Below, one piece after another: positions 15,890-63,927 of a DNA stretch of 64,000 bases. Within the stretch, counting starts at the first letter, position 1; each line of letters opens with the position of its first letter. The DNA comes from Schaalia sp. HMT-172 (GTDB taxonomy: Bacteria > Actinomycetota > Actinomycetes > Actinomycetales > Actinomycetaceae), in contig NZ_CP130058.1 of the NCBI RefSeq assembly GCF_030644365.1, positions 558,001 to 622,000 on the forward strand, given 5' to 3'. A program made the translations under genes and the position numbers. The notes below the pieces were generated by a model. The model saw only the letters and a list, made by a program, of their open reading frames with translations. It ran no database searches and had not been told where the DNA came from.

Positions 15890-16801
15890 ATGGACGCCGC
15901 AACCGACCTGAACCGACCCGCTGAGAGTGCCCAGGCCTCGTCCCCGAATCCGCAGCGCGGAAGCGAACCCTACCGTCAGCCGGGAGGGTCGATCCTGCTG
16001 GCCGCCACCCCCATCGGGGACGTGCGCGACGCCTCCCCGCGCGTCGTCGAAGCCTTGCAAGGGGCAGACATCGTTGCCGCCGAGGACACGCGACGCGCCC
16101 TCGCTCTGGCCTCGCGCCTGGGCATCACGCTGGGTGGGCGCCTGGTTGCCCTGCACGACCACAACGAGGCCGCCAAAGCCGCCGGCATCGTCGAGGCCGC
16201 CCAGGGCGGGGCGCGCGTCGTCTTCGTCTCCGACGCGGGCATGCCCACCGTCTCCGACCCGGGCTTCCGTCTGGCGCGCGCCGCCATCGACGCCGACGTC
16301 CCCCTATCCGTCCTGCCCGGGCCCTCCGCCCCCCTCGTCGCGCTCGCCCTGTCCGGCCTGCCCTCCGACCGCTTCGCTTTCGAGGGGTTCCTGCCGCGCA
16401 AGGACGGGGAGGCCACGCGCTACCTGCAGGACCTGGCCACCGACCCGCACACGCTCATCTTCTTCGAGTCGCCCAGGCGCGCCGCCGCCACACTCGCGCG
16501 CATGACCGAGGTCTTCGGGGCGCAGCGCCCCGCCGCGCTGTGCCGCGAGCTCACCAAGGACTACGAAGAGGTGCGCCGCGGCACGCTGGGAGAGCTCGCG
16601 GAGGACGCGGGCGACGTGCTCGGCGAGGTGACGATCGTCGTCGCCGGGTACGAGCACAGCGCGCGCGCCGAAGACCACGTCGGCGCGGTCCTGGCGCTCG
16701 CGGCGGAAGGAATGCGCCTCAAAGACGCCGCAGCCGAGGTGGCCGCGGCGACGGGCGCGCGCAAGAACGACCTCTACAAGGCCGCGCTTGCCGCGAAGTA
16801 A
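15890..16801 (+). CDS. rsmI: 16S rRNA (cytidine(1402)-2'-O)-methyltransferase RsmI
   Basis: A 303-residue SAM-dependent methyltransferase that 2'-O-methylates C1402 of 16S rRNA in the decoding centre. Family motifs are clear: LLAATPIGDVRDASPR, AAEDTRRAL, LHDHNE, VVFVSDAGMPTVSDPG (SAM site), VLPGPSA, and FFESPRRA. The C-terminal tail (KDAAAEVAAATGARKNDLYKA) is typical of RsmI. An N-terminal extension of ~30 residues precedes the conserved start; the ATG at 15890 is used because no better ribosome site lies inside, though a shorter form is possible. It is divergent from the giant surface-protein gene, with 160 bp between, and convergent with pncA. Confidence 0.94.
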   Translation: MDAATDLNRPAESAQASSPNPQRGSEPYRQPGGSILLAATPIGDVRDASPRVVEALQGADIVAAEDTRRALALASRLGITLGGRLVALHDHNEAAKAAGIVEAAQGGARVVFVSDAGMPTVSDPGFRLARAAIDADVPLSVLPGPSAPLVALALSGLPSDRFAFEGFLPRKDGEATRYLQDLATDPHTLIFFESPRRAAATLARMTEVFGAQRPAALCRELTKDYEEVRRGTLGELAEDAGDVLGEVTIVVAGYEHSARAEDHVGAVLALAAEGMRLKDAAAEVAAATGARKNDLYKAALAAK

Positions 16802-16816
16802 CGAGGCCGGGGAGCC

Positions 16817-17374
16817 TCAGACGATCTCGACGTGCTCCGACGTCATCCACTCGCGGGCCTGCGCGCCCAGCTCCTCGGTGACGGGGGCGGTCAGCTCACG
16901 CAGGACGCGCGTCGGGAACCCGGCGTGAACGGCATCCACGGCCGTGCACGCGACGCAGTGCGACTCGGCCAACCCCACGACGTCCACCTCGGTGATGCCA
17001 GCGTCGCGCAGCGCCTCCTCCAGCGTCTTGCCATCCTCGGTCGTTCCCTCGAAGCCCGAGTAGGCGGCCTTGTACTGGCCCTTCTTGACCGTCACGTCCG
17101 CGTTGACGTTCGCGAGCGCCGGGTGCAGCTCGGCCTCTGCCGTGCCCGCCACGCCGTGCGGCGGCCACGTGTCCACGAAATCCGGCGTCTCGGAGAAGTG
17201 AGCGCCCGGATCGATATGCCAATCCTGCGTGGTGACGATCAGCTGGTACTCGTCGCGGTGCGCGTCCACGTAGGCGGCCACGGCCTCGGCGACGGCGTTA
17301 CCGCCCGTCACCGGGAGGGCACCCCCTTCGCAGAACGTGGGCTGAACGTCGACGATAATGAGTGCGCGGGGCAT
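16817..17374 (-). CDS. pncA: Nicotinamidase (isochorismatase superfamily)
   Basis: A 185-residue cysteine hydrolase that deamidates nicotinamide to nicotinate in NAD salvage. The catalytic triad is visible: Asp9 in IIVDVQPTFCEGG, the lysine in VTVKKGQYKAAYSGF, and the cysteine in ESHCVACTAVDAV. The metal-binding DWHIDPGAHF motif is also present, and the length fits PncA. The start at 17374 has a strong GGGAGG six bases upstream; a longer frame extends upstream through non-conserved sequence. It is divergent from metG and convergent with rsmI, and its end lies 15 bp from the rsmI stop. Confidence 0.92.
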   Translation of the reverse strand: MPRALIIVDVQPTFCEGGALPVTGGNAVAEAVAAYVDAHRDEYQLIVTTQDWHIDPGAHFSETPDFVDTWPPHGVAGTAEAELHPALANVNADVTVKKGQYKAAYSGFEGTTEDGKTLEEALRDAGITEVDVVGLAESHCVACTAVDAVHAGFPTRVLRELTAPVTEELGAQAREWMTSEHVEIV

Positions 17375-17505
17375 GGGACCTCCCTGATACATCAGTAATT
17401 TCCCTAAGGGTATCACCCGGCTCACAGTCGGCGATCGCCTGTTTCGATTCCTCGACATGCGGCCGGTTCCCCGTTCGGGACAGCTACGCAGTATTGTTAG
17501 GGGCT

Positions 17506-63489: not shown

Positions 63490-63504
63490 GAATACAACGT
63501 ATTC
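63490..63504 (-). promoter_or_regulatory. Operator of the relBE-type operon
   Basis: The perfect inverted repeat GAATAC-AAC-GTATTC lies just upstream of the antitoxin ribosome site, as expected for autorepression by the ribbon-helix-helix antitoxin. Confidence 0.6.
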
Positions 63505-63509
63505 TATGC

Positions 63510-63737
63510 TCAGTCGACGTCCTCGTGCCAGATCTGGCGCATGGGAACGCCCTTGTCAAAGGTGCGGGTCGAGCCGTCCTGGAAGGTGACCTCGACCTTC
63601 TCCTTGTCCTCATCCTCCGGATCTTCGATCCAGTCCACCCAGTCGATGGCGGGGGAGAGGGTGCCGTCCTCCCAGACGATTCGGTAGCCTTCGCCCAGGA
63701 GCTCGGACATGACGTCCTCGATCTTGTCGGTGTGCAC
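63510..63737 (-). CDS. Small acidic protein of unknown function
   Basis: A 75-residue protein rich in Asp, Glu and Trp (MSELLGEGYRIVWEDGTLSP, AIDWVDWIEDPEDEDKEKVE, VTFQDGSTRTFDKGVPMRQI). GTG at 63737 has GGAAGG six bases upstream; an ATG 10 codons in is an alternative. No family name comes to mind. It has a regular beta-rich pattern and good codon use, so it is probably real. Confidence 0.65.
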   Translation of the reverse strand: MHTDKIEDVMSELLGEGYRIVWEDGTLSPAIDWVDWIEDPEDEDKEKVEVTFQDGSTRTFDKGVPMRQIWHEDVD

Positions 63738-63927
63738 GGTGGGCCTTCCTTGCGTCGATGCGTGGGCGCGCTGCGGGTGCGCGTGGTTGAGATTCAGCTT
63801 AGCCGCGATGCCTCGGTGAGTTGGTCCCGACACTCGGCCCCGGCCTCGTCCGTTCTGGTCAGAGACGAGGACTGGGCAGGGGAAAACCGTAGTGTGTGCA
63901 CGGTTGTGAGCGGCGTACCCTTGACGC
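63738..63927. other. Intergenic region between divergent genes
   Basis: It holds one copy of the recurrent word (GCCCCGGCCTCGTC, 63837-63850) and a short stem CCTCGTC/GACGAGG (63844-63850 with 63864-63870). No promoter could be assigned with confidence. Confidence 0.5.

What the first reader, a model, noticed from the sequence alone, without database searches (positions are those of the whole stretch)
16801..63850. A heavily over-represented word, GACGAGGCCGGGGC, resembling a DNA uptake sequence
At least 13 exact 12-mers (ACGAGGCCGGGG, either strand) occur in 64 kb, nine extending to the 14-mer. For DNA of about 65% GC I would expect roughly 0.05 copies of such a 12-mer, so the excess is two orders of magnitude. 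Copies occur on both strands and within genes and intergenic DNA, and more than half are intergenic although genes cover most of the window. This is the pattern of uptake sequences in Neisseria and Pasteurellaceae, which I know of in no actinobacterium. Replication-polarised motifs (KOPS-like) are less likely because orientation is mixed. A recombination hot-spot word or a regulator site is still possible.
Basis: partly seen in the sequence, partly recalled or inferred. Interest (0 to 1): 0.82.

Follow-up and report, generated by a model that had tools for sequence, protein, structure and literature searches.

The report
Putative DNA uptake words in actinobacteria
The chromosome of this Schaalia-like actinobacterium is sprinkled with hundreds of copies of one short DNA word, and its relatives carry related words in their own versions, which looks like the self-DNA label that some naturally transforming Gram-negative bacteria use, though uptake itself has not been tested.

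Summary
The window has 13 exact ACGAGGCCGGGG copies; the genome has 418, against 1 for the reversed word, plus 255 ACGAGGCCGTGG. In 295 other genomes drawn from the phylum the 13-mer never exceeds 12, against 286 here. Codon bias does not explain it: 52 of 124 words in a 464-kb sample lie in the 14% non-coding DNA, and coding copies number 71 against a mean of 7 after synonymous shuffling.

Most sampled relatives carry dialects around a shared core, (A/C)CGAGG. The word is better conserved than its flanks at orthologous sites. There is no strand bias, 61:63. comEA, comEC, dprA and two Tad-type pilus ATPase loci are present.

Best reading: a DNA uptake sequence, read during Tad-pilus/ComEC transformation, in Schaalia. 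A 2025 paper calls Neisseriaceae and Pasteurellaceae the only families known to do this (passages). Uptake is untested; one relative shows no word, and the G form also abounds in two genomes outside the main clade. A related word occurs in two other genera.

The parts
16801..16812 (+). word ACGAGGCCGGGG, overlapping the stop of gene 15890-16801
   Evidence: gene end; the exact word is readable in 3 of 6 relatives (shifted alignment) and with one substitution in the other 3; one of these (G023) has a longer insertion with two word-like copies
20563..20574 (+). word ACGAGGCCGGGG inside gene 19470-20936
   Evidence: identical in 5 of 7 relatives
20948..20959 (+). word variant ACGAGGCCGTGG, left arm of an inverted pair just after gene 19470-20936
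   Evidence: hairpin -44.8 kcal/mol, z -6.0; identical in 1 of 7 relatives, 5 others have GCGAGGCCGTGG
20972..20983 (-). word variant ACGAGGCCGTGG, right arm of the same inverted pair
   Evidence: identical in 5 of 7 relatives, G-variant in a sixth
23757..23768 (-). word ACGAGGCCGGGG inside gene 23695-24714
   Evidence: identical in 4 of 7 relatives, readable in a fifth with shifted alignment
24785..24796 (+). word ACGAGGCCGGGG, intergenic
   Evidence: identical in 0 of 7 relatives, 5 of 7 have GCGAGGCC(G/T)GGG at this place
27434..27445 (-). word ACGAGGCCGGGG inside gene 27048-27683
   Evidence: identical in 1 of 6 relatives
29840..29851 (-). word ACGAGGCCGGGG inside gene 29628-30845
   Evidence: identical in 7 of 7 relatives
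33123..33134 (+). word ACGAGGCCGGGG, left arm of an inverted pair after gene 31624-33114
   Evidence: hairpin -53.8 kcal/mol, z -7.9; identical in 7 of 8 relatives
33162..33173 (-). word ACGAGGCCGGGG, right arm of the same inverted pair
   Evidence: identical in 8 of 8 relatives although flanks carry indels
33473..33484 (-). word ACGAGGCCGGGG inside gene 33280-36123 (950-aa ORF; UvrD-like by eye, recalled)
   Evidence: identical in 0 of 8 relatives
35069..35080 (-). word ACGAGGCCGGGG inside gene 33280-36123, in an indel-rich stretch
   Evidence: identical in 7 of 7 relatives while flanks differ by indels
40062..40073 (-). word variant ACGAGGCCGTGG inside gene 38798-40297
   Evidence: identical in 0 of 4 relatives
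51650..51661 (-). word ACGAGGCCGGGG, intergenic, in the island-like segment 46-58 kb
   Evidence: no relative aligned
59318..59329 (+). word variant ACGAGGCCGTGG inside gene 58906-59496
   Evidence: identical in the 1 relative aligned
59968..59979 (-). word variant ACGAGGCCGTGG, intergenic
   Evidence: no relative aligned
62923..62934 (+). word ACGAGGCCGGGG, intergenic
   Evidence: no relative aligned
63838..63849 (-). word ACGAGGCCGGGG, past the last called gene
   Evidence: no relative aligned

Best explanation
The word is a DNA uptake sequence of the Schaalia odontolytica group. Proposed mechanism: (1) free DNA carrying ATnGACGAGGCCG(G/T)GGC is bound preferentially by a surface DNA receptor of the competence apparatus, most likely a minor pilin of a Tad/Flp pilus or ComEA; (2) pilus retraction and ComEA bring it to ComEC, which passes one strand into the cell; (3) DprA and RecA recombine it into the chromosome. 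Because DNA with the word is taken up more often, words that arise by point mutation are spread by homologous replacement and kept against decay, while the flanks drift. Receptor and word co-diverge, which gives dialects around a core. Shown here: the word, its genome-wide excess beyond codon bias, dialects in most sampled relatives, conservation of the word against its flanks, and presence of comEA, comEC, dprA and two Tad-type loci. Inferred: competence of the species, preferential uptake, the receptor's identity and the drive.
For: 418 copies against 1 for the reversed control; at most 12 copies of the 13-mer in 295 other phylum genomes. 71 coding copies against a synonymous-shuffle mean of 7.0, maximum 14 in 200 shuffles; 52 of 124 words wholly intergenic in 13.9% of the DNA. 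Positions 2-6 and 12 are strict, 1 and 10 tolerant. Dialects, coding counts against 30 synonymous shuffles and intergenic counts against a first-order expectation: G013 GACGAGGGCG 24 vs 6.5 and 14 vs 0.1; G005 GACGAGGACG 26 vs 4.3 and 5 vs 0.0; G003 TTGACGAGG 9 vs 1.6 and 6 vs 0.1; G016 ACGAGGCC 37 vs 5.2 and 3 vs 0.3; G024 CCGAGGCC 54 vs 6.8 and 4 vs 0.3. The foreign dialect GACGAGGGCG is not in excess in G000 (19 vs 18.1; 0 vs 0.4). The seven CC-dialect ComEC rows form one clade, 100/100. Word positions 2-6 are 95-97% identical to relatives, flanks mostly 57-85%. No strand bias 61:63. Two inverted pairs behind genes in the window, as known for Neisseria DUS (recalled). comEA-comEC, dprA and two Tad-type ATPase loci; in Micrococcus luteus Flp pili are required for transformation and comEA/comEC homologues and two tad clusters exist (passages).
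Against: No experiment shows uptake preference or even competence in Schaalia; no listed paper in ten searches was about it. ComEC is in 101 of 101 family genomes, so its presence does not discriminate. G032 has ComEC and one Tad ATPase but no word that I could find. In G026 and G030 the excess is in genes only (intergenic 0 and 1). G001, G006 and G008 gave weak and G012 mixed signals. Footprint statistics rest on 6 intergenic and 9 coding words, of 33 in the three regions, in non-independent relatives. Gram-positives have no outer membrane, the barrier at which known uptake words act (recalled).
Confidence: 0.8

Rival explanations
1. A Chi-like word that modulates the cell's end-resecting recombination nuclease (RecBCD, AddAB or AdnAB type), kept because it protects or promotes repair.
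For: Short, very abundant, in genes and between them, with related-species variants; Chi words also differ between taxa (recalled).
Against: Known Chi words are oriented with replication (recalled); here 61 words read with the leading strand and 63 against it (terminus assumed opposite dnaA). Of 10 close neighbour pairs 8 are inverted (6 '+-', 2 '-+'), which has no role for Chi.
Confidence: 0.07
2. A binding site of a chromosome-organising or global regulatory protein (nucleoid protein, FtsK- or ParB-like), not linked to DNA uptake.
For: Several hundred sites spread round the chromosome, 0.5 to 4 per 10 kb in 21 sampled stretches, lowest at 1.37 Mb near the presumed terminus; a regulator and its site can co-diverge into dialects.
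Against: No polarity; no preference for divergent, promoter-bearing gaps (7 of 50 non-coding words with both neighbours called); 71 of 124 words sit inside genes.
Confidence: 0.08
3. A small mobile or amplified intergenic repeat (REP/BIME/MITE type) or a terminator hairpin that spread through the genome.
For: Two inverted pairs form stable hairpins behind genes; at 16801 one relative (G023) has an insertion with two word-like copies.
Against: Only weak preferences outside the 12-mer, none clear beyond -3 and +18; most words are single, 10 of 103 neighbour gaps are 60 bp or less; at 24785 and 20948 relatives carry the word with one or two substitutions at the same place; words inside reading frames.
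Confidence: 0.03
4. Codon, dipeptide or base-composition bias (Asp-Glu-Ala-Gly in GC-rich genes).
For: In same-strand coding copies one frame dominates, 20 of 21 for the G form and 14 of 14 for the T form; GACGAGG-type words have a raised baseline, for example 259 GACGAGGRCG in G000, where GACGAGGGCG is not in excess over codon shuffles.
Against: Intergenic 52 vs 0.1 and coding 71 vs 7 under synonymous shuffling; 295 other phylum genomes hold at most 12 of the 13-mer (their G+C is not shown).
Confidence: 0.01

Closest known systems
DNA uptake sequence (DUS) of Neisseriaceae, read by the minor pilin ComP
   Same: Short word with an invariant inner core, many copies, dialects congruent with phylogeny (Frye 2013, PMC3630211, abstract and passages seen); both strands, in and between genes, inverted pairs behind genes (recalled for Neisseria)
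   Different: Gram-positive host with no outer membrane; Tad/Flp-type genes; no ComP homologue was looked for; core CGAGG rather than CTG; 673 copies of the two main forms against, for example, 3269 in Eikenella corrodens
Uptake signal sequence (USS) of Pasteurellaceae (Haemophilus)
   Same: 9-base core, extended form with an A/T-rich side, two dialects, proposed minor-pilin reader PpdA/ComN (PMC12616744, passages). The ACGACGACG word of G049 and G050 has an A/T tract on its 5' side
   Different: The Schaalia word has only weak A/T preferences at -3, -2 and +18; phylum and pilus type differ
Flp/Tad-pilus-dependent transformation of Micrococcus luteus
   Same: Actinobacterium with comEA and comEC homologues, Flp pili required for transformation, two tad-like clusters (PMC6370729, passages; PMC4322843, passages)
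   Different: 'Uptake sequence' does not occur in the main text of PMC4322843

Membership tests
DNA uptake sequence (DUS/USS kind) | A short word in strong excess over chance across the whole genome | tested here: met
   418 vs 1 reversed control; 78 vs 1.6 Markov in 464 kb
DNA uptake sequence (DUS/USS kind) | Present on both strands without replication polarity | tested here: met
   215/203; 61:63 by replichore in the sample, terminus assumed
DNA uptake sequence (DUS/USS kind) | In genes and between genes, not explained by codon use | tested here: met
DNA uptake sequence (DUS/USS kind) | Invariant inner core with tolerant outer positions | tested here: met
   in relatives the shared part is CGAGG
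DNA uptake sequence (DUS/USS kind) | Dialects that follow phylogeny | tested here: inconclusive
   seven CC rows form one clade, 100/100, but G012 and G014 outside it also hold 185 and 167 copies of the G form; G032 none; G001, G006, G008 weak
DNA uptake sequence (DUS/USS kind) | Host has genes for natural transformation | tested here: met
   comEA/comEC, dprA, two Tad-type ATPase loci; competence itself not shown
DNA uptake sequence (DUS/USS kind) | DNA with the word is taken up or transforms better than DNA without it | not testable with these tools
   needs a wet experiment
DNA uptake sequence (DUS/USS kind) | A specific receptor (minor pilin such as ComP) binds the word | not tested
   Tad pilin-like genes seen; no binding test or model made
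Chi / KOPS-like polar words | Skewed orientation relative to replication | tested here: not met
   61 with, 63 against the leading strand
REP/MITE-type interspersed repeat | Conserved block longer than the word, moved by insertion | tested here: not met
   no clear consensus beyond -3 and +18; several absences are substitutions at the same place, with one insertion seen (G023 at 16801)

The most novel reading that the evidence does not exclude
Self-DNA recognition by uptake words is a property of the family Actinomycetaceae as a whole: an ancestral core ACGA(G/C)G with an A/T-rich 5' side, read by a Tad/Flp-pilus competence apparatus, has split into dialects. These are ACGAGGCCG(G/T)GGC, GACGAGG(G/A)CG, ATTGACGAGG(G/C) and (A/C)CGAGGCC in Schaalia, and ACGACGACG(C) with an upstream A/T tract in at least two other genera (G049, G050). 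This would be the first sequence-specific DNA uptake system in a Gram-positive phylum and with a Tad pilus.
Probability: 0.45. Interest if true: 0.93.

Novelty: new variant of a known kind. Interest (0 to 1): 0.86.

Why it matters
Uptake words are taken to be a peculiarity of two Gram-negative families; a 2025 paper says so outright (PMC12616744, passages). A third case in Actinomycetota, with Tad-type rather than type IVa pilus genes, would show that self-DNA recognition evolved again or is far older, would point to a new class of DNA receptor, and would make gene flow among these actinobacteria (S. odontolytica is a host of Saccharibacteria in co-culture, PMC10633639, passages) predictable from the dialect.

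Tried and rejected
Raw z-score ranking put a CRISPR array and several A/T-rich clustered repeats on top; ranking by distinct 1-kb bins removed the array, though A/T-rich repeats with 6-12 bins still score higher in z. Looking for dialects in 20-kb samples was too small (the 20-kb rows); I then took 80-100 kb of 19 genomes, 15 of the genus and 4 of other genera. Family-wide counts of ACGACGACG cannot be read alone: G000 scores 325, and its coding copies are 45 against 33.5 by codon shuffling (maximum 43) with 4 intergenic against 0.9. G036 is doubtful (42 vs 18 in genes, 6 vs 0.4 between them, but a 3-base periodicity and no A/T tract), so only G049 and G050 are kept as leads. ComEC across the family did not discriminate (101 of 101). 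Density in syntenic against non-syntenic parts of the window was not conclusive, because relatives' DNA was fetched for only part of the window; one search's first footprint statistic (5 intergenic words, 162 of 10,000 draws) was replaced by the larger pool. No receptor structure was predicted and no receptor was ranked. Literature: ten searches; none of the listed titles is about uptake words in Actinobacteria/Actinomycetota. Two lists were cut (15 of 18, 15 of 59). Five papers were opened for passages only. Subscription papers and preprints are not held.
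Full report
Observation. ACGAGGCCGGGG occurs 13 times exactly in the window, on both strands, and 27 sites are within one mismatch against 1.6 in shuffles. Nine GACGAGGCCGGGGC 14-mers are counted. The whole genome (2,533,704 bp, one contig, window at 558001-622000) holds 215 forward and 203 reverse copies, and the reversed word 0 and 1. 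ACGAGGCCGTGG adds 117 and 138.

Sample. In it the word occurs 78 times against 1.6 expected (order-5 Markov), and the T-variant 46 times against 1.35. Among the twelve 12-mers with the best bin-count z-score it is the only one found in more than 12 one-kb bins (68). Higher z-scores belong to a CRISPR array (138 repeats within L029) and to A/T-rich repeats.

Anatomy. Positions 2-6 (CGAGG) and 12 tolerate almost nothing, position 1 tolerates some C, and position 10 is G or T. Beyond the 12-mer there are weak preferences for A at -3, T at -2, G at 0, C at 13, G at 15 and T at 18. So this does not look like the edge of a longer repeat.

Not codon bias. Using a simple gene caller of my own (393 genes), 13.9% of the sample is non-coding. 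Of 124 words, 52 are wholly intergenic, 1 is at a gene edge and 71 are in genes. Shuffling synonymous codons within genes leaves a mean of 7.0 coding copies (maximum 14 in 200 shuffles) against 71 observed. In 295 other genomes drawn from the phylum the 13-mer ACGAGGCCGGGGC occurs at most 12 times; here 286.

Orientation. dnaA lies at 2,512,431. Taking the terminus as opposite, 61 of the 124 sampled words read with the leading strand and 63 against it (added up from the table). That speaks against KOPS- and Chi-like roles.

Pairs. Of 103 neighbour gaps, 10 are 60 bp or less; 6 of these are '+-', 2 '-+' and 2 same-strand. The two in the window, behind genes 19470-20936 and 31624-33114, fold at -44.8 and -53.8 kcal/mol, with z -6.0 and -7.9. 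Paired words serving as terminators are known for Neisseria DUS (recalled).

Relatives. The first search covered 98 genomes, own included. Of the 34 same-genus relatives, 11 hold 119-426 copies of the G form; the other 23 hold 0-45. The 63 genomes outside the genus hold 0-21.

Dialects. Most sampled relatives poor in this word have others built on the same core. With coding counts against 30 synonymous shuffles and intergenic counts against a first-order expectation: G013 GACGAGGGCG 24 vs 6.5 and 14 vs 0.1; G015 16 vs 5.2 and 7 vs 0.1; G020 22 vs 5.4 and 5 vs 0.1; G007 33 vs 9.4 and 2 vs 0.1; G005 GACGAGGACG 26 vs 4.3 and 5 vs 0.0, and TTGACGAGG 28 vs 3.3 and 1 vs 0.1; G003 TTGACGAGG 9 vs 1.6 and 6 vs 0.1; G016 ACGAGGCC 37 vs 5.2 and 3 vs 0.3; G024 CCGAGGCC 54 vs 6.8 and 4 vs 0.3; G026 CCGAGGCC 26 vs 4.7 and 0 vs 0.2; G030 ACGAGGCG 33 vs 5.6 and 1 vs 0.4. 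So in G026 and G030 the excess is seen in genes only. In G000 itself GACGAGGGCG is not in excess (19 vs 18.1; 0 vs 0.4). G012 is mixed (GACGAGGGCG 32 vs 11.3; CC 4 vs 0.1 and 4 vs 0.0). G001, G006 and G008 are weak, and G032 has none that I could find. Whole-genome counts of GACGAGGRCG run from 19 to 1797 across the 35 genus genomes; G000's 259 shows the coding baseline.

Phylogeny. On a ComEC tree of 27 rows the seven CC-dialect rows form one clade with support 100/100, among rows of the other dialects. The labels were set by eye from the 20-kb comEC neighbourhoods, and several RCG labels rest on few copies. Against a clean single gain: G012 and G014, which lie outside that clade, also hold 185 and 167 copies of the G form, but few of the T form (11 and 2).

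Conservation. The window was aligned to 8 relatives, 85-92% identical over a 4.5-kb test stretch. The word is identical in 46 of 90 site-by-relative comparisons, 13 differ by one substitution, 1 is the G/T variant, 14 have more substitutions and 16 are 'indel' calls, some of which are shifted alignments with the word present. Pooling three regions with 33 words, word positions 2-6 are 95-97% identical, positions 7-12 86-94%, position 1 74%, and flanks mostly 57-85%. Intergenic words are identical in 62% of relatives against 18.5% for other intergenic 12-mers (6 words; 77 of 20,000 random draws reach this). Coding words: 53% against 24% (9 words; 118 of 20,000). The other 18 words had fewer than three aligned relatives or sat at a gene edge. 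The relatives are not independent, so these are indications.

Machinery. comEA (L019 94-798; SLBB plus helix-hairpin-helix over Pfam cut-offs, the NCBIfam comE model under its cut-off) and comEC (795-2345; PF03772 and TIGR00360 over cut-off) lie together, beside a gene that I take for holA (recalled). PF03772 is found in 33 of 35 genus genomes, the misses being 70% and 88% complete, and in 101 of 101 family genomes. dprA is found in 34 of 35. Two Tad-type loci exist. L133 has a TIGR03819 ATPase, a T2SSF protein and a TadE-like protein over cut-off. L134 has a T2SSE ATPase over cut-off and a TadE match under cut-off (18 vs 22.9 bits); its tadB, tadC, flp and tadF labels are by eye. The second ATPase type, judged by profile coverage, is missing in G016, G017, G018, G021, G024, G026 and G032. 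In Micrococcus luteus Flp pili are required for transformation, and comEA/comEC homologues and two tad-like clusters are present (passages, passages).

Beyond the genus. In two other genera (G049, G050) ACGACGACG is in excess in genes (12 vs 2.2; 19 vs 2.4) and between them (6 vs 0.1; 7 vs 0.2), and has an A/T-rich stretch at -9 to -3 (0.54-0.80 A+T in 15 and 26 copies), which G000 and G036 copies do not show. That resembles the A/T side of the Haemophilus USS. It is a lead, not a result.

Literature. PMC12616744 (2025; [quoted passage not shown] The paper searches listed in Tried and rejected gave nothing for Actinobacteria in their listings. PMC3630211 (abstract and passages) describes DUS dialects with an invariant core and phylogenetic congruence, a pattern much like the one found here.

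Verdict. The word behaves in nearly every computed respect like an uptake sequence. Whether it works as one is open.

Noticed in passing
L029 (G000:2240001-2260000), 6745-15162: A long CRISPR-like array: 138 copies of GGGGATGAGCC, all on one strand; type I-E-looking consensus, recalled.
   Followed up: no
L011, L015, L016, L027 (G000): A clustered A/T-rich repeat family around GGATAGGTTA and ATCCGGATAG, more than 40 copies in the sample, in a few loci.
   Followed up: no
L012 (G000:120001-140000), 5357-16415: Repeat AAACGTTGCAAT, 13 copies in the sample of which 5 lie here, with a related GTTGGAATTGCAA.
   Followed up: no
window 46000-58000: Island-like stretch: ISL3 transposase piece (46998-47429), GmrSD restriction endonuclease (48484-50205), integrase-core protein (52867-53733), DUF2262 protein (51777-52646); one exact word only.
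   Followed up: partly
window 9661-15729 (-): 2022-aa surface-type protein with Big_9, cadherin-like and fn3 repeats; window 0-14 kb had no match in the relatives' stretches fetched and holds no exact word.
   Followed up: no
L155, L156: Records titled Xylanimonas cellulosilytica 352_XCEL and Sanguibacter keddieii 250_SKED fall inside the Schaalia odontolytica clade and carry its word: probably misnamed assemblies.
   Followed up: partly
L040, L063-L066 (G013): A repeat around AACTGAGCGGACTT, 7-8 copies of its 12-mers in 100 kb, mostly intergenic.
   Followed up: no
L100-L104 (G046): Intergenic 10-mers TGAGCACAAT and GCACAATCGC, 4 copies each in 100 kb against 0.01-0.03 expected.
   Followed up: no
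L105-L114 (G049, G050): ACGACGACG with an upstream A/T tract, a possible uptake word of other genera.
   Followed up: partly
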